From positions 1 through 54,063 of IMG/VR virus record IMGVR_UViG_3300002242_000171: a stretch of DNA of 54,063 nt; one strand, given 5' to 3'. This DNA is from a virus. Below are positions 39,301 to 54,055 of this stretch, piece after piece (position 1 is the first letter of the stretch; every line of letters begins with the position of its first letter). The translations under genes were made by a program, and so were the position numbers. The notes below the pieces were generated by a model. That model was not told where the DNA came from. It searched no databases and worked only from the letters and a program-made list of their open reading frames with translations.

Positions 39301-39649
39301 TGGGCAATTTATAGATTTTGGGTAAGTGAGCGTCTAACATGGGATGTAAACATACAATCTCTATAGGCGCTGTGGCTTCTTGACCATATACAACTTCTTT
39401 AAGTTTGTTGAACGCTCCTTTAAAGTCGCTAGAATCGGGCTTGTCGGTGGCCATGGAATTCAAGACTTTTAAACAAACAACGTTTGCAAACAAAGCTCCG
39501 TCTGGTATTGTTTTCTCAGTATAATCTTTAGCTAGCATATCTCTTGCAGCATATACAGGATTTGTAGTACTGCTCCAAGACTTTACTTTTTTTGATATCG
39601 TTGAGCCGGCATTTAAATCACCTGGAAATAAATTATCAATTGTCGCCAT
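36386..39649 (-). CDS. Tail-associated lysin: TIM-barrel domain plus M15-type peptidase
   Basis: The product (1087 aa) is a probable wall-degrading part of the tail tip. An OB-like N-terminal region (about 95-165: IEIVCLHPMLDAHLP, PGYVVRVRIDDP) is followed by a TIM-barrel-like region (about 257-515) whose strands read LSWICFTGYS, IRTYVLGYPI, GIVIDLGQY, VGITISNI, NIIPGLGMLGA and IIWYDWENINYH, suggesting a glycosidase. A coiled coil (about 575-705) leads to an M15-like zinc peptidase: TSRHYHAGAMDYHVF near 860 and GGPHYDFRGEG near 965, the S-x-H-x-x-G-x-A-x-D and H-x-D motifs of D-Ala-D-Ala-type peptidases. I chose the ATG at 39649, with GAGG 9 nt upstream; an in-frame ATG at 39664 would place that GAGG inside the gene. 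It overlaps the upstream gene by 14 nt. Confidence 0.78.
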   Translation of the reverse strand: MATIDNLFPGDLNAGSTISKKVKSWSSTTNPVYAARDMLAKDYTEKTIPDGALFANVVCLKVLNSMATDKPDSSDFKGAFNKLKEVVYGQEATAPIEIVCLHPMLDAHLPKIYKLPNEAGHGGDEAIKGYPIYQGIPGAAVPKPGYVVRVRIDDPLGTDGRWYLGFDETNIVTVKSAEDAPKLKFEDRCKGDFCGEPMSGEFLDYLNEALEWGTGQHVVKPSIDVTSDQGAIPRGKGVFTGYPDISTHPLKQAQDVNLSWICFTGYSQDRVDSSADGIANTEKMKKLVQEYQYNGIRTYVLGYPIHGREQDFIDKIIELADAAKTIGIVIDLGQYVPPGSSLTSLKIRNDILSLYNNTFNAAKEAGYSVGITISNILNHGNIPWSHIAHSEWRPDFFIPQILAQSAKNEGSDTFLTPENPESQTRKAEFTKIFDIFVKLGFKNIIPGLGMLGARPDPEGWSNYALNDGVINKPPLASRQEIKWTFESSLENPNAIIWYDWENINYHSNKWPEKRWDLIKELGDAEAIAEKFNSTPEIDVANKTMILQNPVETYLSDVVQEFKNFINKNKEHINKANSFIPNKAIWEARDPYAVYPKLDAEGKKELEEDIQDKLKQLKSNEETIQEHTKNLNAMGPALSDLGFKKLYKCLGKTIEIDESFAATQSKIDAAKEALRQAQEYHEELQAKLVELQQILEHQNEEEGPKEKKESGKCVEEKVPDANPNTGESYSGIKNGGQKRKASWPKKLDDVDWDRFETGGDGEWLIKKWNKKGKTRENQNAYFSTTPSPLNTGNPSKERKDAGDKGPWTPSEANKRYTIMTWAAADIMERYWQMVFAPFPNISNVRLKIMSSWRPHLSGTSRHYHAGAMDYHVFYYDNGEKKAVPQLYMWAINWYLMNGAKRIPKGCAGLYLNQNIPGVPGYTEESSKDRGGAAHMGVTGLSFDQQGHPVKGNGGFISPGGQGGGPHYDFRGEGGLPGSATDYYIFINSHASNDVSDIGYSFKKAKNKFQLKGWNYTTVSMDFLKKYNPEVHSFLEDYLKNSKQPPQFPGWPYTLIPANEKIPNWNQILGREDWTEEDDEPLVADAGTN

Positions 39650-39956
39650 TAGCTTTGTCCTCATCGCTTATTAGATCAAAAAGCTGTTCTTTGTCTTCTA
39701 AAGTAAGGCCTTGAGATGAGGAGGATTTTTTGAAAAGTAACGCGTTAAGTTTCACCAATTGTTCGTTTGATCTTTGTAACGTTTCTAAATACTTAGCTGC
39801 TATTTGGCCGGCCTCTTTATGTTCGTGTTTATTTGTGCCGATGTGGCTCATAATATCTACCAATAAAGTAGAGGCCATGGCGCGATCATCTCTAATATTT
39901 TGAAGAGACTCGCCTATTAATGATTCTAGATCTGATTGTTTATTTTTTCGCGACAT
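39636..39956 (-). CDS. Small helical protein next to the sigma factor, unknown
   Basis: The product has 106 residues and is predicted fully helical, with a repeated heptad-like pattern (YLETLQRSNEQLVKLNALLF, 56-75) and an acidic C-terminus (EDKEQLFDLISDEDKANGDN). It resembles no family that I can name. In T4 the late-transcription coactivator gp33 is of similar length, but no specific similarity to it was seen, so this is only a thought from position. It lies 3 nt after the gp55-like gene and overlaps the lysin start by 14 nt. Confidence 0.6.
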   Translation of the reverse strand: MSRKNKQSDLESLIGESLQNIRDDRAMASTLLVDIMSHIGTNKHEHKEAGQIAAKYLETLQRSNEQLVKLNALLFKKSSSSQGLTLEDKEQLFDLISDEDKANGDN

Positions 39957-41537: not shown

Positions 41538-42494
41538 TTACCATTGCCATTTGAAATTGTTTTTGTAAAACTTAACAATTTTTTTGATTTCAATATCGAA
41601 ATCTTTTTCTGGTTTCCAGCCAAGTGATCTTAATTTAGAATCATCTAAAGCATATCTAACATCTTGGCCCGGGCGCTTATAAGTCAAATTAACATATTGT
41701 TGCCAATTCTCATCAGTGCCGTAATAATGAAGAATGATTTTGCGAACTGTTTCTTTGTTCTTTTGTTCGAAAGATCCCGCAATATTAAAAATCTCATTCT
41801 TTCTATTGGATTCTATTATTTTTATAACAGCGCTCGCTGTATCTTCTGCATGCAGCCAATTTCTGTAAGGTTCTCCTTCATTGTGAAGACGAACTTCTCT
41901 ATTCCAATTAAGAAGCTTGATGCTCAGTGGAATTAATTTTTCTGCATGCTGCCTGGTGCCATAATTATTCGTCGGGCGTAAAATAATATATTCTATTCCA
42001 TATGTTCGAGCCCATGCTTCGATTAACAAATCTGCTGCAGCCTTGGATGCCGAATATGGATTGCTTGGCTTTAATAAATCATTTTCTGTGTGGGCGCCAT
42101 CTAAAATGTCGCCATAAACTTCATCTGTACTAAAATGTAATAATATTGGCTTGTTGCAAATATTAGAGGGTTTTTTTCTTATTAATTCCAAGAGGTTTTT
42201 AACGCCTTCAATATTTGATCTAAGAAAATCTTTACTATCAATAATGCTATTTCCGACATGTGTTTCGGCTGCAGTATTAATAATATAGTCACAGTCTGGC
42301 AATGTGTTTAAATCACAGATATCTAGCCGCTTAAACGAAAAATTTTTATAGGTTTGCAAGTTTGTTAAAAATGCTTTATTGGCAGCATATGTCGTTTTAT
42401 CAATACCTAAAACTTTCCAGCCTTTTTGTAAACATTTTTCAGCTACGTGCGAGCCTATAAAACCCAAGCATCCTGTGACAATCACAATTTTCAC
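41538..42494 (-). CDS. rmlB: dTDP-glucose 4,6-dehydratase-like SDR enzyme
   Basis: This is a nucleotide-sugar short-chain dehydrogenase that would convert NDP-glucose to the 4-keto-6-deoxy sugar. It has the NAD-binding G-C-L-G-F-I-G (8-14), the TAAETHVGNSI segment (74-84), the catalytic T-D-E (123-125) with Y147 and K151 (NPYSASKAAAD), and the RmlB-type substrate region LRPTNNYGTRQHAEKLIPLS. At 318 aa it is slightly shorter than typical RmlB. The start codon is GTG, with AAGGGCG upstream, and it directly abuts the cupin gene. Other NDP-sugar 4,6-dehydratases of the same fold are possible. Confidence 0.8.
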   Translation of the reverse strand: MKIVIVTGCLGFIGSHVAEKCLQKGWKVLGIDKTTYAANKAFLTNLQTYKNFSFKRLDICDLNTLPDCDYIINTAAETHVGNSIIDSKDFLRSNIEGVKNLLELIRKKPSNICNKPILLHFSTDEVYGDILDGAHTENDLLKPSNPYSASKAAADLLIEAWARTYGIEYIILRPTNNYGTRQHAEKLIPLSIKLLNWNREVRLHNEGEPYRNWLHAEDTASAVIKIIESNRKNEIFNIAGSFEQKNKETVRKIILHYYGTDENWQQYVNLTYKRPGQDVRYALDDSKLRSLGWKPEKDFDIEIKKIVKFYKNNFKWQW

Positions 42495-42854
42495 TTAATC
42501 GCCCTTAATAATCCTATGAGAATCACTATCAAAATGCTGTGTTGAAAATTCAAACAATTCTGTATCTTCAAGTGCAACCATCTGATGCCTTAATCCACGA
42601 TAAACATGAAAATTATCTCCACGTTCTAAAATTAATTCTGATGCATTCTCTATATCATCATCATCTGAATATTTCACAAGCATTTTGCCAGATTGAATAT
42701 AGAAAACCTCATCTTTCAATTCATGAAAGTGCCAAGAACATCTCTTTCCTTTGACAAAATATAATAATTTTCCACAATATTCTTCACAATTGACGATCCA
42801 TTTTTCAAATCCCCAACCTTTTGGTACAAAATTAATCTCCATAGAAGTGTTCAT
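42495..42854 (-). CDS. Cupin, mannose-6-phosphate-isomerase-like
   Basis: This is a 119-aa single-domain cupin. The metal-ligand motif is clear: W-H42-F-H44-x4-E49 and, at the second half, G-L-R-H90. The opening P-K-G-W-G-F-E-K is typical of sugar-phosphate isomerase cupins and of cupins in LPS loci. It is probably a sugar isomerase or epimerase, or a binding cupin, but the substrate is open. The ATG at 42854 has AAGGGG 7 nt before it, and the gene overlaps the nucleotidyltransferase/HAD gene by 23 nt. Confidence 0.72.
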   Translation of the reverse strand: MNTSMEINFVPKGWGFEKWIVNCEEYCGKLLYFVKGKRCSWHFHELKDEVFYIQSGKMLVKYSDDDDIENASELILERGDNFHVYRGLRHQMVALEDTELFEFSTQHFDSDSHRIIKGD

Positions 42855-43545
42855 CTTTCATCCCCTTATCGTCAATATAAACATCGCCAGCCGGTTTCCC
42901 TAAAACAACTCTATGAAATTTAACACCCCAGCTTTCAAGCTGACGTACTGTAAACAAATAAAATTCTGGTCTGGCCTTGCTGCCATCATTGTGATAACGG
43001 CCCATTCCTCTGGCTGTGTGATAAATTATTTGTTTACCTTTATCATAAAGTTCGTTATTTATTTTAATTCTATCCATTAATGGTTCAGCTTTTTCATAGT
43101 CTCCGTCAGATAAGGTACATATTGTTCCATCAATATCAAAGACATATGATTGTATTTCTTCTTTTTTCTTTTCTAATATTTTAGTTGTTGAGTATCCCTC
43201 GACAAAATTAAATATTTTAACTTCTGCCAAGTCGTTTCCAACAACTTCTTCTTTTTTGTAATCTCCACCTTTTACTATTATATCAGGTTTTATTTTCTTT
43301 ATTAAGTTATATGGCGTTTCTTCTTCAAAAATTATTACATGATCGACATATCTGCAAGACTCTAAAGCAAACTTTCTATCATTTTCAGAAAAATAAGGTC
43401 TTGTGTCACCCTTTAGTTTTTTAACACTAACGTCGGAATTTAAACCAACAATCACCATAAAGCCCAAAGATTTACAATATTTAAAAAGCTCAATATGGCC
43501 TCGATGAAGAATATCAAAACACCCATTTGTAAACACAGTTGTCAT
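42832..43545 (-). CDS. Fused heptose-1-P nucleotidyltransferase and HAD phosphatase
   Basis: This 237-aa chain has two domains. Residues 1-130 are a cytidylyltransferase-fold domain like HldE/RfaE2, with the catalytic H14-R-G-H17 in TNGCFDILHRGHIEL, NSDVSVKKLKGDTRP (36-50), the KGGDY element near 92-96 and the STTKI element (119-123). Residues 131-237 are a HAD-superfamily phosphatase: FDIDGT (D137, D139), IIYHTARGMG and VYIDDKGM. In the heptose route a kinase, a phosphatase and a nucleotidyltransferase act in series; here the last two activities appear joined. Whether the HAD part is truly the GmhB-type phosphatase or another LPS-type phosphatase is not shown by sequence. It overlaps the kinase gene by 4 nt. 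Confidence 0.8.
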   Translation of the reverse strand: MTTVFTNGCFDILHRGHIELFKYCKSLGFMVIVGLNSDVSVKKLKGDTRPYFSENDRKFALESCRYVDHVIIFEEETPYNLIKKIKPDIIVKGGDYKKEEVVGNDLAEVKIFNFVEGYSTTKILEKKKEEIQSYVFDIDGTICTLSDGDYEKAEPLMDRIKINNELYDKGKQIIYHTARGMGRYHNDGSKARPEFYLFTVRQLESWGVKFHRVVLGKPAGDVYIDDKGMKDEHFYGD

Positions 43546-44279
43546 ACCACACTGACTCCTCTTTTCTGAACAACAACAGTTGCACAGTCATTTGCATATC
43601 TGATAGATTTTTTAATGTCCTGAGTTGTGCTGTAATTAACAACTAAGCCGGACAAAAAAGTATCGCCTGCTCCAGAAACATCTTTAATTTCAACAGATTT
43701 AACAGGATAAACTTTATCTTGATATTTGCAGCCTCTAGGCCCTATCGTTACGATTAATTTATTTTTAATATTTTCCGGAATGCTATTTTTTGTTTTTTCA
43801 TATTCGTGATGGTTTATCTTTATAAATTTAACATTCTCACACCATGATCCAAGATCTTTCTTTGTATCCAGAAAAACACATTTATGATTTCGCGCAATAT
43901 ATTCGACATCTTCTTCTGTTAGAAATCCTTTGCAATAATCTGAAATTACTATAATTTCATAATTTGATAATGGAATTTCTTTAATATCGCATCTGTCTAT
44001 TTCATGATCGTTTTTGTCTATTCTAATAAACATTTGATTTGTGTTTTTGTGAACATATCGCGTTTTCATGACTTGTTGCCAGTTATCATTAGTAATGATA
44101 TCACAATCTTGTCCTAAAGCTATTATATTCCTTTGGACATTCATAGCCATGCCAGAACTTTCCACCTGTTCGATCAGATTAAAAACAGGTACTGGAGCTT
44201 CTGGAGCTAAACGATCACAGCTGCCGTAACAATATATATCCTTGCACGATTCTCCAATTACTAAAATGTTTGATGCCAT
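43542..44279 (-). CDS. hldA: Heptose-7-phosphate kinase-like (PfkB/ribokinase family)
   Basis: The 245-aa product probably phosphorylates a sugar phosphate on C1. It carries the HldA-type N-terminal signature (SCDRLAPEAPVPVF, 20-33) and the family's anion-hole and catalytic base motif G-A-G-D (203-206, in DVSGAGDTFLSGL). HldA-type kinases are usually above 300 aa. The middle here is compact: the ESSGMAMNV segment replaces the common G-G-A-A-N-V-A, and much of the region after it appears missing. This is therefore a shortened version, or one with changed substrate binding. It sits 4 nt into the nucleotidyltransferase gene and 3 nt after the dehydratase. Confidence 0.8.
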   Translation of the reverse strand: MASNILVIGESCKDIYCYGSCDRLAPEAPVPVFNLIEQVESSGMAMNVQRNIIALGQDCDIITNDNWQQVMKTRYVHKNTNQMFIRIDKNDHEIDRCDIKEIPLSNYEIIVISDYCKGFLTEEDVEYIARNHKCVFLDTKKDLGSWCENVKFIKINHHEYEKTKNSIPENIKNKLIVTIGPRGCKYQDKVYPVKSVEIKDVSGAGDTFLSGLVVNYSTTQDIKKSIRYANDCATVVVQKRGVSVV

Positions 44280-44282
44280 TGT

Positions 44283-45290
44283 TTACCGACTTAGAAATTT
44301 ATTTCCTGAATGTATTCTTTGTCTCCAATAGTTTAACAGATCATTCATCGTTTTGTTAAATGAAATTTCAGGAGTCCAGCCGGTATGATTGGTAAATTTT
44401 GTTGTATCTGGAACTTGTAAATCTGCATCGATAGGGCGTAGTCGACTTTGCTCAATTTCAACTTTTATATCTTTTACGGCTGAACATTCAATTAAATAAT
44501 TTAGCATCTCTTTCACCGTACAGGAAAAACTACCGCCAATGTTGTAATATTCTCCGGATTGCGGATCTTTTGTGACCAACATATAATATGCGCGAACTGC
44601 ATCTCTAACGTCAGACCATGTTCTCAAAGAATCTAAATTTCCAACTTTGATAACCGGCTCTAATTGGCCGGCTTCAATCATTGCAATTTGTTTAGCAAAT
44701 GTCGATTCAGCAAAAACATCTCCTCTTCGTGGTCCAGTATGAGTAAACATGCGAGTAGTCATAATTGTCATATTATAAGCTTCTGCGTAATATCTACCAA
44801 TTAAATCTGTTCCTACTTTTGATATTGCATATGGAGATGCCGGATGAAATGTGCACTCTTCGTTAATAGGCAAATATTCTTTGGGTACTCGACCAAAAAC
44901 TTCAGATGATGCACATACGTGAATCACCGGATTATAGGCCGATTTTCGAATAGCTTCCAATAACTTAGCCGTACCTAGTATATTCGTCTCTAACGTCTCT
45001 AAGGGGGCTTTAAAGCTAGTCTGTGGGTAACTTTGAGCCGCAAGGTGGAATACATAATCCGGCGAGGCCTCAGAAACAGCTGAATCTAAAGATGGATAAT
45101 CATTTAGATCTCCATAAATCAAAGATATGCGATCTTTGTTGTTTATGCGCTCAAACAAATGTTCAATATTTGACATGTCATCATTCCAACGACAAAAACC
45201 ATATATATCCCAATCTGTATGTTCTAGAAGAAAGTCAGTCAAATGAGAACCGACCATGCCTGTTATACCTGTAATGAGTGCTTTTTTCAT
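44283..45290 (-). CDS. gmd: GDP-mannose 4,6-dehydratase-like SDR enzyme
   Basis: The 335-aa product is an extended SDR enzyme. The N-terminus shows G-I-T-G-M-V-G (8-14), the S-S-E (128-130) of the catalytic triad and Y154-A-I-S-K158. The signature FHLAAQSYPQTSFKAPLETL and the SNIEHLFER stretch point to GDP-mannose 4,6-dehydratases. In some bacteria a close relative acts on GDP-heptose instead of GDP-mannose, giving 6-deoxyheptose. Given the adjacent heptose kinase that is an attractive possibility, but the substrate cannot be read from the sequence. It is preceded by the His-type DegT gene with a 1-nt gap. Confidence 0.78.
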   Translation of the reverse strand: MKKALITGITGMVGSHLTDFLLEHTDWDIYGFCRWNDDMSNIEHLFERINNKDRISLIYGDLNDYPSLDSAVSEASPDYVFHLAAQSYPQTSFKAPLETLETNILGTAKLLEAIRKSAYNPVIHVCASSEVFGRVPKEYLPINEECTFHPASPYAISKVGTDLIGRYYAEAYNMTIMTTRMFTHTGPRRGDVFAESTFAKQIAMIEAGQLEPVIKVGNLDSLRTWSDVRDAVRAYYMLVTKDPQSGEYYNIGGSFSCTVKEMLNYLIECSAVKDIKVEIEQSRLRPIDADLQVPDTTKFTNHTGWTPEISFNKTMNDLLNYWRQRIHSGNKFLSR

Positions 45291-45291
45291 T

Positions 45292-46458
45292 TTAAGGCCT
45301 TCTGTTTAATTTTTCGCACAAAGATACAATTTGCTTTTCAGATAATTCAGTATGGTTTCCGATATATAAACTATTTTCATGAATAAAATCAGCATTATTC
45401 AAATTACCTGAAATTCTAAATTCGTAGTTCTTTAAATACGGCTGTCTGGCTTGATTGCCGCCGCCGGCAGTGCCCAGACGATATTCTACCCCTTCTTCTT
45501 CCAAAGTTCTGCAAATTTGTTTTAATAATAGAGAGTTGGCTTCTTTTAATATTAGAGGTAATGCAAAACTACTATTGCCCTGTAGATTAAAATCAGTAAA
45601 AAACATATCTTTGTCTAATGAATTGAGCCATGTGTTCAAATTATCTTTTCTACAGGAAATGTTATAATCTAGCCTTTTTATTTGTTGCAAACCCAATACT
45701 GCATTCAGTTCAGTGCTGCGCATATTGTAGCCTGGTACTCCAAATGTAAAAAGTGGATTTAAGCCTGTTTCATAATATCCTTCATGGGTTTTTTTATCGA
45801 CTTCTCGCGTCATCCCATGAGAACGAAAAAGTCTAGCTAATTGATATATCTTATAGTCATTTGTGCAAACCATGCCTCCTTCTATCGTTGTGATATGGTG
45901 ACCAAAATAAAAAGAGAAGCAAGACATGTCTCCTAAAGTGCCAACTTTCTTATTTTCATGTTCAGCTCCGTGTGATTCACAGCAGTCTTCAATTAACAAG
46001 AGATCATTTTTCTTTGCTAATCGAATTATCTCTTCGTTCAAGCCATCAAAACCCAAACAATGAACCAAAACAATTGCTTTTGTATTTTCATTGATTGCGT
46101 TTTTAATATTTTCATAAGAAATTGCCATAGTCTCTTTATCAACATCAACAAAAACCGGCTTGAAACCAGTATTGATCACAGAAGCAACATCAGAAACCCA
46201 TCCAATTGGTGGAACAATAATTTCTCCTTTCTGTCCCTTCATTTCGCGGGTTATGGCCATGGTAATATAATTCGCAGAAGCTCCGGAATTGACCATGACA
46301 CTATATTTAACTCCTAGCCATTTTGACCAAGCTTCTTCAAATTCTTTTACTTTTGGCCCATTTGTAAAGCGGTTTGAATTTAATATAAAATCTGCCAATG
46401 CTAGCTTATCTTCTTGAGTTATATTATCGTTAATTAAGGGTATATTAAAGTTCTTCAT
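45292..46458 (-). CDS. DegT-fold sugar 3-dehydratase-like enzyme (His-His in place of Lys)
   Basis: The 388-aa product is a PLP-dependent sugar-modifying enzyme of the DegT/DnrJ/EryC1/StrS fold. In aminotransferases of this family the PLP lysine lies in a S-F-x-x-x-K motif; here the segment reads FSFYFGHHITTIEGG, with H187-H188 in that place and no lysine. ColD and CDP-6-deoxyglucose 3-dehydratases have exactly such a His and remove the 3-hydroxyl. This predicts a 3-deoxygenation step rather than amine transfer. LLIEDCCESHGA (154-165) carries the PLP-binding Asp. It overlaps the radical SAM gene by 1 base and is followed by the GMD-like gene, which could make its 4-keto-6-deoxy substrate. Confidence 0.78.
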   Translation of the reverse strand: MKNFNIPLINDNITQEDKLALADFILNSNRFTNGPKVKEFEEAWSKWLGVKYSVMVNSGASANYITMAITREMKGQKGEIIVPPIGWVSDVASVINTGFKPVFVDVDKETMAISYENIKNAINENTKAIVLVHCLGFDGLNEEIIRLAKKNDLLLIEDCCESHGAEHENKKVGTLGDMSCFSFYFGHHITTIEGGMVCTNDYKIYQLARLFRSHGMTREVDKKTHEGYYETGLNPLFTFGVPGYNMRSTELNAVLGLQQIKRLDYNISCRKDNLNTWLNSLDKDMFFTDFNLQGNSSFALPLILKEANSLLLKQICRTLEEEGVEYRLGTAGGGNQARQPYLKNYEFRISGNLNNADFIHENSLYIGNHTELSEKQIVSLCEKLNRRP

Positions 46459-47978
46459 TAGTCTCCTAGTAATTTTCTTTTTAATTTAATTTTTGTATTT
46501 TCAACAATATTATCTGCGGCAATATCTCCGAACTTATTTCTTATTTTAGCTAAGAATTTAGGCGATGTATGAAATTTATTATAAGCTTCGTCTCTAAATT
46601 TTAAAATTTCTGCAGCAGTTAAATTATTGGTTGACAAAGGAAGCGTGTTATATGAATGCCATGAATATCCTGCATAATCTTCTGGGAGTTCTGCTCCTCT
46701 TTCAATAGCATCTTTATATAACTGACTTCCAGGCAAAGCCATTGATGCATAAAAGTTTGCCATGGCCGGCGCCAGATCTATGGCTAATTCTAAAGTTTTC
46801 TCCATGCTCTCAACAGTATCGGTCGGTAATCCAAATATAAAATTTGCTCCTACATTTATGTCAGCTTCTTCAACTTGTCGTACAACTTCATGAATATCAA
46901 CATCTTGAAATTTACCTTTTGAAACTTCTAGTCTTACGTTTCTATCTCCGCTTTCAATACCTAAGCCAAGCCATCTAATTCCTGATTCTCTTACTATTTT
47001 TAAAACATCTGGGCGTCGAATAGTATCAATTCTAGAATAGGCCCACATTCGTAAATCTTTTCCATATCCTCTTTCGATGAGGCCTTCACATACTGGCAAA
47101 TAATATTTCGGATTTAATAAAAACATCTCATCAATGATTCGAATATTTTTGACACCCATCTCAACTAATTTATCGAATTGCTTTAAAACAAATTCAGGTG
47201 ACCAATATCTCATCATACTATAATTTCCAGCAACTCCAATTGGATCATTGTCATTGCGATTTAAAATATTAATCATACAAAATTCACACTTAAATTGACA
47301 CCCCAGAGAGGTATTGATAGCTGCATATGGAGTTCTAATTTCATGATCGTATTCGGCATGCCACATAGGGCAACGATATAAATCAAATGGCTTTTCTTTA
47401 AAAGGTAATAAGTCCCAAGCATAGCCAGGTAAATCAACATCCATTCTTGAAGTAGGAACTACTTTTTCCGGCTTATTCAAAATAATTTGATCATTTTCTC
47501 TATATCCAATACCTTTTATATTTTTTAAATTATCCAAATTATTTAGTAAGTTTCTTAAAGCATATACACCTTCGTTGGTAAACACGATATCAACACTTTT
47601 CTCTTCTTTTAGTGTTTCGTATGGAAGTGCCTGCACATGAGAGCCAATAAAAGAAATTGGAATTTGAATACCGGATTTTTTAATATGATCCGATAGAGCA
47701 ATTGCGCCGCTCATAGTAGTTGTGCCGGCATTTACATTTTGACCATATGCAACAACGCATATTAGCCTAGGATCGGCTTTTTTTATTCTTTCGATAGCAT
47801 TATCTAAAGTTAGTTTTTCGGCGGCCGTATCTAGTATATCTACTTTAAAACCAACAGATCTGCAAGATTCTGCCAACAAACATGCCCAGGTCGGTGGTTC
47901 AACTGCTGCATAATCTTTTGCCAAATCTTGATATAATGATTTGGCATTGCCCGGGGCTATGAATAAAACGTCTAACAT
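46458..47978 (-). CDS. B12-binding-type radical SAM protein
   Basis: The 506-aa product has an N-terminal region of the cobalamin-binding type seen in many radical SAM proteins (about 1-150: DVLFIAPGNAKSLY and FIGSHVQALPYETLKEEKSV). The core starts at C227-Q-F-K-C231-E-F-C234, the CxxxCxxC cluster motif for the 4Fe-4S cluster, followed by the usual SAM-binding segments (RIIDEMFLLNPKYYL and WLGLGIESGDRNVR). Such proteins make methyl transfers or difficult carbon-centred changes. The substrate is not evident; the glycan context suggests a sugar, but a lipid or peptide is possible. It overlaps the E1-beta-like gene by 7 nt. Confidence 0.8.
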   Translation of the reverse strand: MLDVLFIAPGNAKSLYQDLAKDYAAVEPPTWACLLAESCRSVGFKVDILDTAAEKLTLDNAIERIKKADPRLICVVAYGQNVNAGTTTMSGAIALSDHIKKSGIQIPISFIGSHVQALPYETLKEEKSVDIVFTNEGVYALRNLLNNLDNLKNIKGIGYRENDQIILNKPEKVVPTSRMDVDLPGYAWDLLPFKEKPFDLYRCPMWHAEYDHEIRTPYAAINTSLGCQFKCEFCMINILNRNDNDPIGVAGNYSMMRYWSPEFVLKQFDKLVEMGVKNIRIIDEMFLLNPKYYLPVCEGLIERGYGKDLRMWAYSRIDTIRRPDVLKIVRESGIRWLGLGIESGDRNVRLEVSKGKFQDVDIHEVVRQVEEADINVGANFIFGLPTDTVESMEKTLELAIDLAPAMANFYASMALPGSQLYKDAIERGAELPEDYAGYSWHSYNTLPLSTNNLTAAEILKFRDEAYNKFHTSPKFLAKIRNKFGDIAADNIVENTKIKLKRKLLGD

Positions 47979-48877
47979 ATGATTTCCTGCTTAATTTTTG
48001 AAATTATTTTTGATGCGGAGGGTGGCAAATTATCTACCGTTGGATAAAATCCTGCTGTTCTGTTCTCCAGACACATCGTGCGAACACATTTTCCTGATTG
48101 GACCATCATCCTGTGTGCAATACTGCTAGCGGCACCTTCCTCATAATCATCATCCAATACAATACCACCATATTTTGAATTATTTAAGGCTTTTTTCCAC
48201 TCTTCTTTAAAGACAAAAGGCTTAATCCATAATTGGTGAATTACATTAACTTTCAATCCTTCTTTTTCCAGTTCTATTCTAGCTTTTTCTGCTTCAAATC
48301 TTGTTATTGATATTGGAAAAAGAGTTATATCTGCTTCTTGATGAATTGTATTTTTGAATTCTTCTGTATTATCATAGCTTTTTCTGTGTTCTGAGATATA
48401 GTAGACCTCATCATCTTTCATGAATTCATCATACGCGTATTGATATTCAGCGGAACTCATTGGAGATAATATTTTAACTCCAGGCATTCTCTGGTATATA
48501 GAATGATGCGAAGATCCTGCAACGGGCCCCATTCCTCCTTCCATCGCGATGCTACGAATCAGAAGAGGGCATGATCGATCCCAAACTTCTTTTGATTTCA
48601 TAGCATAATTTGCAATAATTGGAGAGTTAAACCATTGAAATCCTTGATATCTAACAACATAAATCGGCCTTTCGCCGGCCAGCGCTGCTCCAACAACAAT
48701 TCCGGCGCCTGCAACATCAGCCATTGATAATTCTACCATCCCATCTTTTTCATAAAGTTCAGGTAATGTGCCGCCGACCCATCCAACTGCAGTTAAACAC
48801 TGGCCATAACACTTTGAACCATTTTTTAAGTGGTGCCTGGTGATGTCTTTTATTGTTTGTCTAACTGTTTTTGCCAT
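47972..48877 (-). CDS. TPP-enzyme E1 beta-like / transketolase C-terminal-type subunit
   Basis: The 301-aa product is the beta-type half of a split TPP-dependent dehydrogenase or transketolase. The segment MADVAGAGIVVGAALAGERP (52-71) matches the E1-beta element around the residue that activates thiamine, but the usual Glu appears to be Asp (D54). PVAGSSHHSIYQRMPGVKIL fits the family's His-containing loop and P-G-V/L-K-V motif. The C-terminal domain (GIVLDDDYEEGAASSIAHRM) is the E1-beta ligand-binding part. It overlaps the alpha-like gene by 28 nt, so the two were probably translated together. Confidence 0.75.
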   Translation of the reverse strand: MAKTVRQTIKDITRHHLKNGSKCYGQCLTAVGWVGGTLPELYEKDGMVELSMADVAGAGIVVGAALAGERPIYVVRYQGFQWFNSPIIANYAMKSKEVWDRSCPLLIRSIAMEGGMGPVAGSSHHSIYQRMPGVKILSPMSSAEYQYAYDEFMKDDEVYYISEHRKSYDNTEEFKNTIHQEADITLFPISITRFEAEKARIELEKEGLKVNVIHQLWIKPFVFKEEWKKALNNSKYGGIVLDDDYEEGAASSIAHRMMVQSGKCVRTMCLENRTAGFYPTVDNLPPSASKIISKIKQEIIC

Positions 48878-49692
48878 AGTTGCTCCACCTTTTCTTTAGT
48901 TTCATTATGAATTTTTTGAGCTATTTTGCCTAATCCGGACATTTCATGCTCATATCGATCAAAAGTATTCGGATCATCAATGCCAGCGCCTGAATGCCAA
49001 AATTTTCTATGAGTATTTATGTTTAATAGCATAGGGGCCTCAAAGACATTTTCTAAACATTCTTTAATCTCCAAAGGGTTGTCAGAAGTTTGCATGCCTT
49101 TCATTCCGAAAGCTTTTGCTACGTCATCCATCTCCCACTTTCTTCTTACTTTTTTTTCTGTCAAGATAGATAAATTGTTATCTTCAACAACAAATAAAAT
49201 AGGTAAATTTTTAGTAGAGGCCCAGCCCATTGCCCCTAGGACATAATCTTCTTCAGCGGACGCGTCTCCCATATAAACAATTGTGGGCTGTTCGGTCTGA
49301 TAGCAGTGGCCAACCGAAATTGGAACTTGGCTTCCCATTAGGCCATCATGGCCAAATATGTTTTTTTCCTTTGAATGGATAGACGCTGACCCGCCCATTC
49401 CTCCTGCACAACCAGATTTTCTTCCCAATAATTCATCGATCAATTTATCTATTGGTGCTTCGAATGACAAGTATGTAGAATGACCGCGGTGTTGTATGAA
49501 TATGTTTGGTTCAATATTTTTTTCTGCCATAACTTCTGCAATCGATGCAGATATATATTCTTGTCCTGCTGACAAGTAAATTGGAAACTTGAACATTTTA
49601 TTTTGAATACCATCAAAAACATATTGCTCAAAGTTTCTGCATAAAGAAGCTCTTTTGAAAACATTAAGCCTATATTGGTTATTCACATTCAT
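48850..49692 (-). CDS. TPP-enzyme E1 alpha-like subunit
   Basis: The 280-aa product is the alpha-type half. The TPP motif runs from G142-D-A-S-A-E-E to V-E-D-N172-N173, and the cofactor loop GGMGGSASIH lies around 97-106. IQHRGHSTYLS near 66-76 fits the family's Arg-Gly-His site. The pair resembles E1 of pyruvate-type dehydrogenases, but no E2 (lipoyl) or E3 gene is seen. In avilamycin biosynthesis an E1-alpha/beta pair is thought to add a two-carbon branch to a sugar, a precedent for a role here. It overlaps the 2OG-oxygenase-like gene by 14 nt. Confidence 0.76.
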   Translation of the reverse strand: MNVNNQYRLNVFKRASLCRNFEQYVFDGIQNKMFKFPIYLSAGQEYISASIAEVMAEKNIEPNIFIQHRGHSTYLSFEAPIDKLIDELLGRKSGCAGGMGGSASIHSKEKNIFGHDGLMGSQVPISVGHCYQTEQPTIVYMGDASAEEDYVLGAMGWASTKNLPILFVVEDNNLSILTEKKVRRKWEMDDVAKAFGMKGMQTSDNPLEIKECLENVFEAPMLLNINTHRKFWHSGAGIDDPNTFDRYEHEMSGLGKIAQKIHNETKEKVEQLWQKQLDKQ

Positions 49693-50602
49693 GAAATTTT
49701 AAATTTCCTGTTGTATAGTGGGAGAAGGTGGTTTTTTTATGTAAAACATGATCATCGTTTATTGATCTTTTCGTAGAAATCAGCAAATCTTCTCCTATAA
49801 TTTTAAAGTCATTAGTATATTCTGCTTCTCTATCCGGATGGACGCTGTGCTCTCCTATTAGGATTGTAGTATCAATTGAAGCGCGCGTTCCTGATTTTTT
49901 CTTTCTGTTGGTTGCATGAATCAGCGCATAATCACTAATGTGAACTTTGCCTTTTTTTGGTATCAAACTCTCATCAGGCTCATAATAATCTAGCACCCAT
50001 TGCATTTCTTCATATGTTGCGGCAGTGTTCAAAAACCTATCTGAAAAAGATGATTTATCTTTAGGGCTCCAAAAAATAAGATTATTTTTCTCAACATCCC
50101 CCAGCAAAGGAATATAACAATTCATTGACCATGGGCCCTCAACCCAAGCATCAGAATGAGGAAAACTGGTATTTAATGTTCTATTAACATTGTCCTCTAA
50201 TTCTGTTCCAAATTTAATTCTAATATTAGGCGTCATTCTAAATTTTGTCATTAAATTAGGATTATTTTTAATAATGCTATTGACTATGTTAGACCAGCTT
50301 CTCAAAACTAAATTATATTCTATTTGATATTCTTTTTTAGGAACAACTCCGCCATTTGGAGTAACATTATCTCTTTTTAATCTATTATCATCTATTTTTT
50401 GGATAAATTCTTCTTCATTTGTTGTAAAATCAAAATATAAAGCTTTCGATATGTAGAGCATCATAGAAAATTTTAAAGATCGTAATTCTTCATCTGTTGG
50501 AGTATAAGAAACCATAAGATCATGTACTCTATCTAAATTCCAATCATTTTGCATTTTTAAAAATCTAGATTTTCTATACGTATAATCCTCACTCATTTTC
50601 AT
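49679..50602 (-). CDS. Probable 2OG-Fe(II) oxygenase
   Basis: This 307-aa protein has the layout of a 2-oxoglutarate/iron oxygenase. The H-x-D motif occurs in SFPHSDAWVEGPWS (H149, D151). A distal histidine and an arginine follow in ISDYALIHATNRKKKSGTRAS (split here as IHATNR and SGTRAS; H229, R240), matching the H-x-D...H...R pattern. The segments NCYIPLLGDVEKNN and KVHISDYALIHAT are typical of the double-stranded beta-helix. A sugar hydroxylation is the likely role given the neighbours, but the substrate is unknown. It overlaps the HAD gene by 4 nt and the E1-alpha-like gene by 14 nt. Confidence 0.65.
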   Translation of the reverse strand: MKMSEDYTYRKSRFLKMQNDWNLDRVHDLMVSYTPTDEELRSLKFSMMLYISKALYFDFTTNEEEFIQKIDDNRLKRDNVTPNGGVVPKKEYQIEYNLVLRSWSNIVNSIIKNNPNLMTKFRMTPNIRIKFGTELEDNVNRTLNTSFPHSDAWVEGPWSMNCYIPLLGDVEKNNLIFWSPKDKSSFSDRFLNTAATYEEMQWVLDYYEPDESLIPKKGKVHISDYALIHATNRKKKSGTRASIDTTILIGEHSVHPDREAEYTNDFKIIGEDLLISTKRSINDDHVLHKKTTFSHYTTGNLKFHECE

Positions 50603-50991
50603 TTTAATCTCTCTTTTATATCACGCATGGTGTCTTCCCAATTTTGAAAATAATATCCTTTATCATCAATATAGAGCTGAGCGCGGGGCTTTTCGCATGT
50701 AATTTCATCAATATATTGCAAAACATTATATTTTTCCAACCACTCTGTAACCAACTCTGTTCCGTTTTTCCCATTAACCAGTGGTCGCGAGGGTTTTACT
50801 TTTGCTGTAAAAATAATAATATTAAAATTTTTTGATAAATCTTTGATCGCCTCTAAGGATCCCGGAAGGGGATCTCCATAGCATGTACCATCGTGCCATC
50901 CTTTACTAAAATCATGTATTACTCCATCAAAATCGATCGCAACATTTTTTAAATCTTTTTCAAATCCTGGTGGTACTTCTTTATTGCTCAT
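50599..50991 (-). CDS. HAD-superfamily phosphatase (single domain)
   Basis: The 130-aa product is a small HAD hydrolase without a large cap. Motif I is VAIDFDGVIHDF (D20, D22), motif II is IIIFTAK, and motif IV reads LYIDDKG. It resembles the C-terminal HAD domain of the fused 42832-43545 protein (VYIDDKGM), so the cassette contains two related phosphatases. It overlaps the cupin gene by 11 nt and the oxygenase gene by 4 nt. A sugar-phosphate phosphatase role, for example of the GmhB type, is inference. Confidence 0.75.
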   Translation of the reverse strand: MSNKEVPPGFEKDLKNVAIDFDGVIHDFSKGWHDGTCYGDPLPGSLEAIKDLSKNFNIIIFTAKVKPSRPLVNGKNGTELVTEWLEKYNVLQYIDEITCEKPRAQLYIDDKGYYFQNWEDTMRDIKERLK

Positions 50992-51652
50992 TGCTTTTCT
51001 CCATGGTAATAATAATTGTTTCTATGTCTAAGACAGTAAAAACTTGCATAAGTTGTTTGAGCGTGTTAGATGATATAACGTCCCCGGGGCCGGCGACAGT
51101 TGTTCCATAATTTGTTTTTAAGCCGCCGCGCAAAAATATAATATTTTTATCATCTTGAATATTTTTTAAAGAGGAAATACTTTCTATCTTAACAACATCA
51201 ATTTTTGAATTTGCAATCTTATATGCATGTGCGTCGACGGGGTCTTCTATCCACAAACAATCGTTCTTCTTGGGCATCTCAAACGTTTTATCTTCATACG
51301 GAGTGCCTTCGCGACCATACTTGTCTTTAAGTCGTACTAAGTCATGCTTATCAACAGGAGTCTCAATTTCAAAAATATATGCACCTTCCTTTGAAGTTGC
51401 TTTCGTCGAATGAAACAAGCCTTTTCGAATCATGATTTTTTCTAGAGATTTAAGTTCGAAAGAATCATTGAGAAAAGAGACTTCAACTTTGCCATCAATC
51501 AAAATCAAACCAGTAGTTTTATTTGGATGACAATGCATAGAAGTGCTTTGATCCGGCGCTATGTATAAACACCATAGAGCAACATTTTCATTTTCGTATG
51601 CAAGGTATTCATATCCCCATGGTTTCTTAACAATGTTATCAAACTTTCTCAC
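50981..51652 (-). CDS. Cupin-domain protein, LPS-biosynthesis type
   Basis: The 223-aa product has a cupin in its first 110 residues: M-H40-C-H42 and, later, L-F-H81, with the opening K-K-P-W-G-Y-E-Y. The usual metal Glu is not obvious (TTGLILIDG stands in its place). The element DLVRLKDKYGREGTPYE (104-120) recurs in cupins of surface-sugar loci. The C-terminal part, about residues 150-223, is an additional region of unknown function. The start codon is GTG, with GAGG upstream, 3 nt after the DJ-1-like gene. The substrate is unknown. Confidence 0.68.
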   Translation of the reverse strand: MRKFDNIVKKPWGYEYLAYENENVALWCLYIAPDQSTSMHCHPNKTTGLILIDGKVEVSFLNDSFELKSLEKIMIRKGLFHSTKATSKEGAYIFEIETPVDKHDLVRLKDKYGREGTPYEDKTFEMPKKNDCLWIEDPVDAHAYKIANSKIDVVKIESISSLKNIQDDKNIIFLRGGLKTNYGTTVAGPGDVISSNTLKQLMQVFTVLDIETIIITMEKSNEQ

Positions 51653-51655
51653 AAG

Positions 51656-52195
51656 TTATTTGCCTCTTTTTTCAAAAGTTTGATATCCCGCTCTCATCCA
51701 TTCACCCATAAAATCATAATGAGGTGAAGAGACTATATTGCTATCAACTACAACTGGGCCTCGATGATATTTTGCGCCGGCATTGTTAATATCGGCTTCA
51801 ATGGCATAATAGCCAGATACAGTTTTTCCTTCAATAACGCCGGCTGTAATTAATAATTGTGCTCCGTTGCACAAAGAAAAAATAGTCTTGTCTAGAGCAT
51901 TCCATTCACGAACGAATTCAACAACTCCCTCTTCTAATCTTAATTTTTCTAAAGCTTTGACACCGCCTGGAACAACCAAAATATCGTATTCTAGATATTT
52001 TTTTCTATTTTCAGAGTCATTAAAATCAGTTGTTAATACATCGCCAACCATATGACAGCCCAAAATACCATAAAATCTGCCTAGCTGATTAGCAACAACA
52101 GTAACTTCAAAATTATTTTCTTTCAAACTATGATACGGATAAATAACTTCATGGTCTTGAAATCCGGTATACGTAAGAATAAGCGCTCTTTTCAT
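51656..52195 (-). CDS. DJ-1/PfpI-family protein
   Basis: The 179-aa product has the DJ-1/PfpI fold. The nucleophile elbow is FSLCNGAQLL with C109, and an acidic residue sits at E16 (GFQDHEVIYP), the usual nearby Glu. ILVVPGGVKALEK (72-84) is the oxyanion-side motif. A conserved His appears in SSPHYDFMGEW. Such proteins are chaperones, deglycases, glyoxalases or amidases; the activity cannot be told from the sequence. It is unusual within a surface-sugar operon, between an RmlC-like gene and a cupin gene. Confidence 0.75.
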   Translation of the reverse strand: MKRALILTYTGFQDHEVIYPYHSLKENNFEVTVVANQLGRFYGILGCHMVGDVLTTDFNDSENRKKYLEYDILVVPGGVKALEKLRLEEGVVEFVREWNALDKTIFSLCNGAQLLITAGVIEGKTVSGYYAIEADINNAGAKYHRGPVVVDSNIVSSPHYDFMGEWMRAGYQTFEKRGK

Positions 52196-52204
52196 TTTAT
52201 TTCC

Positions 52205-52681
52205 TTATTTGTCTCTTAATTGTAATATTGGCTTATCTATAGGCCAATTTATATTAATATCTTTGTTATCCCATTTTAACGTAAACTGCTGGTCAACGTC
52301 AGGATATTCGCCCTCATAAGACCATTTATAATGGAACACAGAACTATCTGATAGTACTAAAAATCCATTTCCTACTCCCGGAGGTACTAGGACTTGTTTT
52401 CTAGTTTTATCGTCTAAAATCAACCAATCCCATTGTTTGTAGGTATTAGATTCTGGCCTATTATCAACCACAACAAAATACATTTCGCCATGGAGACACG
52501 TTATTAGCTTATGAGATTTAAAATCTCCGTGAATTCCACGGAGAACATATTTTCTGCTAGTCGACACCTTATCATGATTAAAATCTAGATCGTGATCTCC
52601 ACTTTTCCACAAAGTCCACAAGTCACCTCTGTAATCAGTGAATACATCCGGATTAAAAATCTTTACATCATGAATTTTCAT
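52205..52681 (-). CDS. rmlC: RmlC-like dTDP-4-keto sugar 3,5-epimerase
   Basis: The 158-aa cupin-type epimerase acts on a 4-keto-6-deoxy nucleotide sugar. It shows the conserved LRGIHGD with H51 in the place of the RmlC catalytic His, VLVPPGVGNGFLVLSD (97-112), and a Tyr in the following VFHYKWS. RmlC proteins are usually about 180 aa, so this is slightly short. Together with the RmlB-like gene it could make a rhamnose-type or related precursor. No RmlA or RmlD gene is seen in the window. It starts 14 nt inside the end of the 139-aa gene. Confidence 0.75.
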   Translation of the reverse strand: MKIHDVKIFNPDVFTDYRGDLWTLWKSGDHDLDFNHDKVSTSRKYVLRGIHGDFKSHKLITCLHGEMYFVVVDNRPESNTYKQWDWLILDDKTRKQVLVPPGVGNGFLVLSDSSVFHYKWSYEGEYPDVDQQFTLKWDNKDININWPIDKPILQLRDK

Positions 52682-53087
52682 CCCAGCTAATTTCCCAATC
52701 CTTAAATTCTGCCGCTAAACAATCAATTTTATAATCTTTTCTACCGCCAGCTAATTCTTGAATTTTATTTTTAGCAGTATTTCTAATGCCATTTAGTCCA
52801 TGAGTTAGTTCTAAATTATTTCCATCTTTTACGCCTTTACGATAATTTGACTCATTGTGCCAAATATGTAAATTCATTTGAGATAAAACAATAATTGCCC
52901 TGACTGTATTTGCATCTAATATAACATTTTTTTCGCTTAATGTTAAGTCAATATCATGTAAGATGTCGGAAATTTCTTGAGCGTATTCTTCTTTGTGCTC
53001 TGGTATAAAAACTTCTTTAAGCTGAGCTATTGATAATCTATCTACTAATTCAGATAAGGTTGGTAAATATTTTCTTCTTTCTTTCAA
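52668..53087 (-). CDS. Small helical protein in the glycan cassette, unknown
   Basis: The 139-aa product is not recognised. It is helical and opens PTLSELVDRLSIAQLKEVF (about 9-27), with SQMNLHIWHNESNYRKG in the middle and LAGGRKDYKIDCLAAEFKDW near the end. The start codon is TTG, backed by GAGG 5 nt upstream, and it overlaps the glycosyltransferase stop by 4 nt (TTGA). No other in-frame ATG occurs near the start. The genomic company suggests a part in glycan assembly, without evidence of an enzyme motif. Confidence 0.6.
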   Translation of the reverse strand: MKERRKYLPTLSELVDRLSIAQLKEVFIPEHKEEYAQEISDILHDIDLTLSEKNVILDANTVRAIIVLSQMNLHIWHNESNYRKGVKDGNNLELTHGLNGIRNTAKNKIQELAGGRKDYKIDCLAAEFKDWEISWDENS

Positions 53088-54055
53088 CGAAGCCTCTTTT
53101 CTACTATATCTTTAAATATTCTTTCGGTTGAATACAGATTAATAGCCTTTTGATATGCGTTCTCTGCTACCAGCTGATAGTGGTCCCAATTATTTAATAT
53201 TTCTCGTATTTTATCTTCTAGATCTTCATCATTCTTATAATAAACAAATTCTTTTTCTGGCTCAAACCAATAATCAAATATATGCCATGGATCTTCTTTC
53301 AACAATACTAGTGTCTTGTTGAAAATGGCCTCAATCGGACGCGTTTTAATTTGAGGTGCGATTTTCTGATCCAATCTACAAAAAGCTTCATTTTCGCGCC
53401 AATCCGGAAGCTGTTTTATGATCTCTATTTCACTATCTGTAAAATATAAAAGATTTGACGTTACCATGATTTTGCTTGCTCTTAAGTATCGCCACATGGC
53501 GGGCCTAGGAATATTAACTCCGGTTACATACTTTACTAGGTTTTGTGGTATGCCTAGGCCAAGTGTGAAGAAAGCATGCTTAAACTTGGGAATAGTTTGT
53601 ATAATATTTAATACTGTAGACTGATCTCTAATTGACGGAGTAGGTACATTTCCCCAATAAATTACATCTAAAATTTTATCGGGATTTTCATTTTCTGGAG
53701 CACTCCAGTTAATATTGTGAGGAAAAATAATAGGCCTATATTTATCATAATTATTTATTTTATTCATCCACTCCGCACTATACGGACATGTCGAATATAT
53801 CTCATGAAAATAATCGGCCACTTCTAGGCTTTTTTTTACTTCTTGCGGGGGGCCATAGAAACCACAGGGTTGCTCTCCTTGATAATATACTTTTCTTTTA
53901 AAATTTTTATATTTATTTTTTATCTCACTGTTATATGGAGTGGCATATCCATAAAATAGCACTTCCTCTTCGCTATCATTATCAAATTTTTCAAAATCTA
54001 AATATTCGTACGCACAGTCGCCATATTCTCCCGTCTTGTCTCTAACAATTTTCAT
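53084..54055 (-). CDS. Glycosyltransferase-like protein
   Basis: The 323-aa protein is probably a GT-B-type glycosyltransferase. The C-terminal half carries the usual nucleotide-sugar-binding part: AFCRLDQKIAPQIKTRPIEA, then FNKTLVLLKEDPWHIFDYWF, a pattern of acceptor-end and donor-site loops seen in surface-sugar glycosyltransferases. No transmembrane helix is present. Family and linkage cannot be assigned. It is the first complete gene of the window in transcription order, so more of the cassette may lie beyond the right edge. It overlaps the next gene by 4 nt. Confidence 0.7.
   Translation of the reverse strand: MKIVRDKTGEYGDCAYEYLDFEKFDNDSEEEVLFYGYATPYNSEIKNKYKNFKRKVYYQGEQPCGFYGPPQEVKKSLEVADYFHEIYSTCPYSAEWMNKINNYDKYRPIIFPHNINWSAPENENPDKILDVIYWGNVPTPSIRDQSTVLNIIQTIPKFKHAFFTLGLGIPQNLVKYVTGVNIPRPAMWRYLRASKIMVTSNLLYFTDSEIEIIKQLPDWRENEAFCRLDQKIAPQIKTRPIEAIFNKTLVLLKEDPWHIFDYWFEPEKEFVYYKNDEDLEDKIREILNNWDHYQLVAENAYQKAINLYSTERIFKDIVEKRLR

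What the first reader, a model, noticed from the sequence alone, without database searches (positions are those of the whole stretch)
41538..54055. Large phage-borne cassette for an unusual deoxy (possibly branched) heptose or hexose
One compact, co-transcribed array joins a heptose-7-P kinase, a nucleotidyltransferase-HAD fusion, GMD-like and RmlB-like 4,6-dehydratases, a His-type 3-dehydratase, an RmlC-like epimerase, E1-alpha/beta, radical SAM, an oxygenase and cupins. A plausible logic: activate a heptose, make a 4-keto-6-deoxy sugar, remove O-3, then add a two-carbon branch and further methylation or hydroxylation. I know no phage system with this whole set. The product could modify host LPS (superinfection exclusion), decorate the virion, or enter phage DNA.
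Basis: inference. Interest (0 to 1): 0.82.

Follow-up and report, generated by a model that had tools for sequence, protein, structure and literature searches.

The report
Phage cassette for branched deoxy sugar
A large uncultured phage carries a 16-gene, tightly packed set of sugar-making enzymes, shared as conserved gene blocks with related phages and with marine bacteria, that most likely builds an unusual deoxygenated, carbon-branched heptose used to decorate a surface, probably the virus particle itself.

Summary
In detail: 16 overlapping minus-strand ORFs (41538-54055, cut by the contig end) encode the enzymes named, plus a glycosyltransferase, a DJ-1/PfpI protein, a second HAD and a bicupin. 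The enzymes sharpen to a chain. GMD-like 44283 is closest to C. jejuni GDP-heptose 4,6-dehydratase (382 bits; next 193). DegT 45292 is ColD-like (His for Lys, no Fe-S motif). E1-alpha/beta resemble the split ThDP pairs that add two-carbon branches to keto-sugars; no E2 was found. The radical SAM enzyme is B12-dependent. Relatives occur in 23 uncultured viral loci, modular but block-conserved and under purifying selection, including a 186-kb contig with several glycosyltransferases and no flippase. No E1-beta match exists in 50,697 isolate-phage records. The same set occurs in marine Betaproteobacteria beside flagellin genes, and in Thiothrix with GmhA and an HddA-like kinase, so it is not phage-exclusive. 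Best reading: an NDP-3,6-dideoxy-4-C-acetyl heptose pathway for cytoplasmic glycosylation, most likely of virion proteins. Base sugar, branching step and target are inferred; no product is shown. Phage sugar cassettes are known; this chemistry makes it a new variant. A second, RmlB-type dehydratase may serve another sugar.

The parts
53084..54055 (-). Glycosyltransferase (Glyco_trans_1_2 type); contig ends here, cassette probably continues
   Evidence: PF13524 3.1e-8; 39% identical homologue at the same place in the 186-kb relative G001, which has several more glycosyltransferases upstream
52668..53087 (-). Small conserved cassette protein of unknown function (weak DUF7164 hit)
   Evidence: 50-89% identical in most related phage loci; dN/dS as low as 0.009
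52205..52681 (-). RmlC-like sugar 3,5-epimerase
   Evidence: PF00908 4.3e-37; TIGR01221 106 bits, below equivalog cut-off
51656..52195 (-). DJ-1/PfpI family protein, constant partner of E1-alpha/beta in phages and bacteria
   Evidence: PF01965 8.5e-34; linked to E1 in most of the 37 bacterial loci
50981..51652 (-). Bicupin, constant partner of E1-alpha/beta
   Evidence: PF01050 2.9e-6; AlphaFold model pLDDT 90 with matches to bicupins and phosphomannose isomerase cupins
50599..50991 (-). HAD-family phosphatase-like protein
   Evidence: PHROG 1238 1.4e-16; 59-73% identical in E1-bearing phage and Thiothrix loci
49679..50602 (-). 2OG-Fe(II) oxygenase-like protein
   Evidence: invariant H149-x-D151, H229, R240 in six relatives; Foldseek best hits are 2OG-Fe(II) oxygenases, low-confidence model
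48850..49692 (-). E1-alpha-like subunit of a split ThDP enzyme
   Evidence: PF00676 7.2e-18; GD-x...NN ThDP motif
47972..48877 (-). E1-beta-like subunit of the split ThDP enzyme
   Evidence: PF02779 3.5e-9; profile matches PDH E1-beta 1.2e-9; catalytic Glu position is an invariant Asp in nine phage rows
46458..47978 (-). B12-dependent radical SAM enzyme, probable C-methyltransferase
   Evidence: PF04055 and PF02310; CQFKCEFC motif; profile reaches AprD4, TokK, CysS, tryptophan C-methyltransferase
45292..46458 (-). ColD-like PMP-dependent sugar 3-dehydratase
   Evidence: ColD 228 bits vs E1 159 bits; His for Lys; no Fe-S cysteine cluster
44283..45290 (-). GMD-type NDP-heptose 4,6-dehydratase-like enzyme
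   Evidence: 7us5 GDP-D-glycero-D-manno-heptose 4,6-dehydratase 382 bits vs 193 for the next
43542..44279 (-). Short HldE domain I-like heptose-phosphate kinase
   Evidence: TIGR02198 120.7 bits (cut-off 345); 4e84 heptose 7-P kinase is best PDB hit
42832..43545 (-). HldE domain II-like sugar-1-P nucleotidyltransferase fused to a HAD domain
   Evidence: TIGR02199 157.1 bits (cut-off 181.5); TIGR01689 and PHROG 1238 for the HAD part
42495..42854 (-). Small cupin
   Evidence: PF07883 5.4e-8
41538..42494 (-). RmlB-type 4,6-dehydratase, possibly for a second nucleotide sugar
   Evidence: TIGR01181 7.1e-89 (298 bits, cut-off 365); best PDB hits are dTDP-glucose 4,6-dehydratases; TDEVYGD and YSASK motifs

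Best explanation
A phage glycan-biosynthesis operon of cytoplasmic enzymes. A sugar phosphate (most likely heptose 7-phosphate from the host) is activated by the HldE-like kinase, a HAD phosphatase and the HldE-like nucleotidyltransferase. The GMD-like enzyme makes the 4-keto-6-deoxy sugar, the RmlC-like enzyme may epimerise it, and the ColD-like enzyme removes O-3. The E1-alpha/beta pair then adds an acetyl unit from pyruvate to the C-4 ketone, and the B12 radical SAM enzyme and the oxygenase decorate it further. Phage glycosyltransferases attach the product in the cytoplasm, most likely to virion (tail or fibre) proteins. Shown: genes, motifs, closest families, conserved blocks, selection, glycosyltransferases present but no flippase, polymerase or E2 found. 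Inferred: substrate, reaction order, branch position, methylation, target.
For: Dehydratase closest to GDP-heptose 4,6-dehydratase; 3-dehydratase closest to ColD with its diagnostic His and no Fe-S motif (criteria in PMC8987622). DegT copies at least 54% identical go with the GMD-like gene in 7 of 7 non-redundant phage loci, DegT copies at 44-48% in 0 of 8 (Fisher p 1.6e-4, phylogeny not corrected). Split E1-like ThDP pairs add C2 branches to keto-sugars (KbDH in vitro, AviB1/B2, Pau11/12; PMC12247030, PMC4425429). His-type 3-dehydratase within about 10 kb of E1-beta in 17 of 37 bacterial loci. Bacterial parallels with HddA-like kinase, GmhA and transaldolase. No E2. MTA/SAH nucleosidase, APRT and flavin reductase beside the radical SAM gene in related phages. 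Target: flagellin genes beside four betaproteobacterial clusters; no Wzx-type flippase or Wzy in 12 records and no ORF with 6 or more TM segments in the 186-kb relative, while glycosyltransferases occur in 10 of 12 records.
Against: HldE-type kinase and nucleotidyltransferase normally make ADP-beta-heptose, whereas the dehydratase and 3-dehydratase resemble GDP-sugar enzymes; both HldE domains fall below the equivalog cut-offs. GmhA is absent from all records tested. The catalytic Glu of E1-beta is Asp throughout the phage family. E1's constant partners are the DJ-1 protein and the bicupin, whose roles are unknown. E1 and the radical SAM gene often occur without each other. Betaproteobacterial clusters L068 and L070 carry GDP-mannose genes, so a hexose is possible there.
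Confidence: 0.5

Rival explanations
1. Same kind of sugar, but the target is the host envelope: nucleotide sugars and glycosyltransferases remodel LPS or capsule during infection, blocking superinfection.
For: SAR11 and Thiothrix homologues sit in surface-polysaccharide-like islands. Cyanophage clusters of this sort have been called LPS clusters (PMC3037559). Host flippase and ligase could be used.
Against: No flippase, polymerase or 6-TM protein found in the phages; position beside sigma and tail genes; flagellin neighbours in Betaproteobacteria.
Confidence: 0.3
2. The base sugar is a hexose: GDP-mannose or dTDP-glucose feeds the dehydratases, giving a colitose- or yersiniose-like hexose, and the HldE-like genes serve a separate heptose.
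For: A second, RmlB-type dehydratase is present; GMP/PMI and Fcl-like genes lie in L068 and L070; some loci have HldE-like kinase without the GMD-like gene.
Against: 44283 scores 382 bits with the heptose enzyme and at most about 150 with GDP-mannose dehydratases; it is adjacent to the HldE-like kinase in the window, G001, L010 and L020/L021; Thiothrix clusters pair it with GmhA and an HddA-like kinase.
Confidence: 0.25
3. E1-alpha/beta with DJ-1, bicupin and HAD form an independent side pathway (for example a ketose or acyl substituent), not a C-4 branch on the ColD product.
For: These partners accompany E1 even where no 3-dehydratase lies within the contig stretch; E1-beta has Asp for the catalytic Glu.
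Against: E1 directly abuts DegT in G001, L020-L021, L023, L068, L070, L075 and L077; the ThDP family precedent is C-branching of 4-keto sugars.
Confidence: 0.3
4. Stuffer DNA or decaying host genes with no function in the phage.
For: The possibility was raised for cyanophage LPS clusters in PMC3037559.
Against: Intact reading frames, dN/dS mostly about 0.06-0.29 in close pairs, conserved order and complementary enzyme sets.
Confidence: 0.03

Closest known systems
GDP-colitose pathway (GMD, ColD, ColC)
   Same: GMD-type 4,6-dehydratase followed by a ColD-like, Fe-S-free, PMP-dependent 3-dehydratase with His for Lys
   Different: Heptose-type dehydratase, HldE-like activation, E1-alpha/beta and B12 radical SAM added, no ColC assigned
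Campylobacter jejuni GDP-6-deoxyheptose pathway
   Same: Closest solved relative of 44283 is a GDP-heptose 4,6-dehydratase of this pathway; RmlC-like epimerase present
   Different: HldE-type instead of HddA/HddC activation; 3-dehydratase and branching enzymes added; phage-borne
Split ThDP C2-branching enzymes (alpha-KADH2: KbDH-alpha/beta, AviB1/AviB2, Pau11/Pau12)
   Same: Separate E1-alpha and E1-beta subunits with no E2 found, beside deoxysugar genes
Yersiniose pathway (CDP-sugar, E1/E3, YerE)
   Same: Predicted product class: 3,6-dideoxy-4-C-branched sugar
   Different: YerE is a single flavoprotein on a CDP-hexose; here a ColD-like dehydratase and an E1 pair on a probable heptose
Cyanophage LPS clusters (P-SSM2, S-SSM7, ACG-2014f) and Flavobacterium phage immuto cassette
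   Same: T4-like phages, large nucleotide-sugar and glycosyltransferase islands, some near phoH
   Different: The annotated stretches examined (ACG-2014f, immuto) list no E1-alpha/beta, B12 radical SAM enzyme or HldE-type activation; no E1-beta match in isolate phages

Membership tests
ColD-type 3-dehydratase | Catalytic His in place of the aminotransferase Lys | tested here: met
   FGHHITTIEGG; both His invariant in 15 phage rows
ColD-type 3-dehydratase | No four-cysteine [2Fe-2S] motif, unlike E1/RfbH and SpnQ | tested here: met
   No conserved cysteine set in the alignment; ColD 228 bits vs E1 159 bits (criterion from PMC8987622)
ColD-type 3-dehydratase | Acts on a GDP-4-keto-6-deoxy sugar | not testable with these tools
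   needs enzyme assay
GDP-heptose 4,6-dehydratase | Closest characterised relative is the heptose enzyme, not GDP-mannose dehydratase | tested here: met
   7us5 382 bits; next 193 (a reductase); GDP-mannose dehydratases at most about 150
GDP-heptose 4,6-dehydratase | SDR dehydratase motifs (S/T-x-E, YxxxK) | tested here: met
   CASSEVFG and YAISK in the translation
GDP-heptose pathway | GmhA, HddA and HddC partners | tested here: not met
   No SIS_2 domain in 13 phage records; HldE-type genes instead. Thiothrix homologue cluster has GmhA and an HddA-like kinase
HldE heptose kinase and adenylyltransferase | Scores above NCBIfam equivalog cut-offs | tested here: not met
   120.7 vs 345 and 157.1 vs 181.5 bits
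Split ThDP C2-branching enzyme | E1-alpha and E1-beta without E2 acyltransferase | tested here: met
   PF00198 in 0 of 12 records, controls positive
Split ThDP C2-branching enzyme | Linked to enzymes making a 4-keto deoxy sugar | tested here: met
Split ThDP C2-branching enzyme | ThDP-activating Glu in beta subunit | tested here: not met
   Asp53 invariant at that position in nine phage rows; same ADV motif in the six bacterial rows matched
Split ThDP C2-branching enzyme | Sequence relationship to AviB2, Pau12 or KbDH | not tested
B12-dependent radical SAM C-methyltransferase | CxxxCxxC plus B12-binding domain | tested here: met
B12-dependent radical SAM C-methyltransferase | Methyl transfer | not testable with these tools
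   MTA/SAH nucleosidase, APRT and flavin reductase beside relatives are indirect support
T4-like phage glycan cluster | T4-like phage, several glycosyltransferases, island near phoH | tested here: met
   gp55-like sigma, baseplate wedge, PhoH-like gene and glycosyltransferases in G001; the PhoH call is by reading the sequence

The most novel reading that the evidence does not exclude
Phages and marine bacteria share an undescribed pathway to a 4-C-acetyl, C-methylated 3,6-dideoxyheptose, built with a split E1-type carboligase and a B12 radical SAM enzyme, that glycosylates filament-like proteins: flagellin in the bacteria and tail or fibre proteins in the phage, so that the virion carries the same kind of sugar as a bacterial surface filament.
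Probability: 0.25. Interest if true: 0.8.

Novelty: new variant of a known kind. Interest (0 to 1): 0.62.

Why it matters
Whether the large sugar islands of T4-like phages are functional, and on what, was left open when the cyanophage genomes were compared (PMC3037559). This cassette is specific enough to test: it predicts a definite nucleotide sugar and a protein target. It would also place split E1-type C2-branching chemistry, so far discussed for secondary metabolites, in phages and in Gram-negative surface glycans, and would add a probable B12-dependent sugar C-methylation to phage biochemistry.

Tried and rejected
GmhA (SIS_2) in the window record and 12 related records: none. Isolate phages: E1-beta and the small conserved protein 52668 give no match; the radical SAM enzyme only a 24% hit in Streptomyces phage SF3. 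Plasmids: one 23% E1-beta hit. CDP-sugar E1/RfbH assignment of DegT rejected for lack of the cysteine motif and lower score. Oxidative pyruvate dehydrogenase role rejected because no E2 was found. DNA modification judged unlikely: the glycosyltransferases seen include group 1, group 2 and GT11 types, with no DNA-specific one recognised. Stuffer DNA rejected by selection. AlphaFold of the oxygenase was low confidence (67) and supports only the fold class; the bicupin fold did not point to one reaction. Host not identified; nearest isolates by sigma and baseplate are Flavobacterium phage immuto and Microcystis phage Mel-JY01 at about 28-33%.
Full report
What is there. The window is a 54,063-base virus record of a T4-like phage: a gp55-like late sigma factor, a baseplate wedge protein and a DNA primase are recognisable. 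Upstream of the sigma gene, 16 minus-strand ORFs from 54055 down to 41538 follow one another with gaps of at most 9 bases and many overlaps, so one transcript is likely (inference). The first ORF of the series starts 8 bases from the contig end, so the cassette is probably incomplete. Families are given.

Refining the enzymes. The GMD-like protein 44283 matches the solved GDP-D-glycero-D-manno-heptose 4,6-dehydratase 7us5 (from C. jejuni, by my own knowledge) at 382 bits, with the next structure at 193 and GDP-mannose dehydratases at most about 150. DegT 45292 matches ColD at 228 bits and the Fe-S enzyme E1 at 159; its active-site Lys is His, invariant in 15 relatives, and no Fe-S cysteine set is conserved, which are the ColD criteria reviewed in PMC8987622. 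E1-alpha and E1-beta are distant relatives of pyruvate dehydrogenase E1, with the ThDP motif in alpha but an invariant Asp where PDH E1-beta has its catalytic Glu. No E2 acyltransferase occurs in 12 records. The radical SAM protein has a B12-binding domain and CQFKCEFC, and its profile reaches AprD4, TokK, CysS and tryptophan C-methyltransferase. The oxygenase conserves HxD...H...R and resembles 2OG-Fe(II) oxygenases in fold, on a weak model. 50981-51652 is a bicupin. The kinase and nucleotidyltransferase are HldE-like but below equivalog cut-offs.

Relatives in phages. The radical SAM gene has 15 and E1-beta 8 loci in uncultured viral contigs; isolate phages have no E1-beta match and only a 24% radical SAM match. 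Contig L019 keeps nine consecutive genes, RmlC to DegT, in the window's order at 45-70% identity. Elsewhere blocks are recombined: DJ-1/bicupin/(HAD)/E1-alpha/E1-beta is one block, the radical SAM gene another, and HldE-like kinase and a His-type DegT are nearly universal. DegT copies at least 54% identical to the window's occur with a GMD-like gene in 7 of 7 non-redundant loci; more divergent DegT copies in 0 of 8 (related contigs, so the p value of 1.6e-4 is only indicative). Several radical SAM-bearing loci also carry MTA/SAH nucleosidase, APRT and a flavin reductase, the housekeeping expected of a radical SAM enzyme; none were found in loci that have E1 without the radical SAM gene. Close pairs show dN/dS mostly 0.06-0.29.

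The 186-kb relative. G001 carries the cassette between a PhoH-like gene and the sigma factor, with group 1 and group 2 glycosyltransferases, a GT11, UDP-GlcNAc 2-epimerase, UDP-glucose dehydrogenase and an FkbM methyltransferase. No ORF has six or more hydrophobic segments, and flippase (PF01943) and Wzy_C are absent from 12 records while glycosyltransferases occur in 10. Most records are fragments, so absence is strongest for G001.

Bacterial counterparts. E1-beta homologues occur in 37 bacterial loci: Thiothrix SAGs and a gammaproteobacterial MAG (71-73%), SAR11, SAR116, Betaproteobacteria, Patescibacteria and others. The DJ-1 and bicupin genes travel with E1 in most, and 17 of 37 loci hold a His-type 3-dehydratase. 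In betaproteobacterium L077 the radical SAM, E1-alpha, E1-beta, DegT, oxygenase, bicupin, DJ-1 and GMD-like genes lie in about 9 kb beside HldE-like and HddA-like kinases and a flagellin gene; L068, L070 and L074 also have flagellin nearby. Thiothrix L049 adds GmhA and an HddA-like kinase to a 65% identical GMD-like gene; L074 adds a transaldolase. In the E1-beta tree the Thiothrix group lies inside the phage group (98/94), pointing to exchange between phages and bacteria.

Mechanism. From these, the likely chain is heptose-P activation, 4,6-dehydration, optional epimerisation, 3-deoxygenation, and transfer of an acetyl unit from pyruvate to the C-4 ketone, with C-methylation and hydroxylation by the radical SAM enzyme and oxygenase. 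Precedent for the branching step is the split alpha-KADH2 type: KbDH-alpha/beta couples pyruvate to sugar-like ketones in vitro (PMC12247030), and AviB1/B2 and Pau11/12 are implicated in avilamycin and paulomycin (PMC4425429). My estimates: a 3,6-dideoxy-4-keto NDP-sugar 0.85; heptose 0.7; C2 branch 0.6; C-methylation 0.5; virion protein as target 0.45. The RmlB-type enzyme may serve a second sugar.

What is known and what is not. Sugar islands in T4-like phages are known (PMC3037559; ACG-2014f and immuto), and virion glycosylation is reported for mycobacteriophages (cited in PMC12619734). The combination here was not found in isolate phages, nor in a small literature search. I therefore call it a new variant of a known kind.

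Noticed in passing
L001:17192-18936; also L002, L004, L005, L007: APRT, MTA/SAH nucleosidase-like and flavin reductase genes (all or some) sit beside the B12 radical SAM gene in related phages, apparently clearing or supporting its SAM chemistry.
   Followed up: yes
window 51656-52195 versus L016:7605-8144: The DJ-1 gene is 91% identical between window and G001 while most neighbouring cassette genes are 52-85%, suggesting gene-specific exchange or strong constraint.
   Followed up: partly
L048-L051: Thiothrix/gammaproteobacterial E1-beta lies inside the phage clade, so these marine bacteria may be hosts or exchange partners of the phages.
   Followed up: partly
L049:31-1564: A second, more ordinary-looking E1-alpha/beta pair (SED at the catalytic Glu position) stands directly upstream of the heptose-dehydratase-like gene in a Thiothrix SAG.
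   Followed up: no
window 12928-23010 and 26925-35420: Two giant proteins of 3360 and 2831 aa in the tail region, possible fibre or glycan-acceptor candidates; not annotated here.
   Followed up: no
window 36386-39664: A 1092-aa protein near the sigma factor gene with a peptidase-like C-terminal part by eye, perhaps a tail-associated lysin.
   Followed up: no
L029 (G001:38001-57000), genes at 49948-52853 of G001: UDP-glucose dehydrogenase, NAD synthase-like and GDP-mannose epimerase-like genes extend the relative's sugar repertoire beyond the window's set (the last two by reading the sequence).
   Followed up: partly
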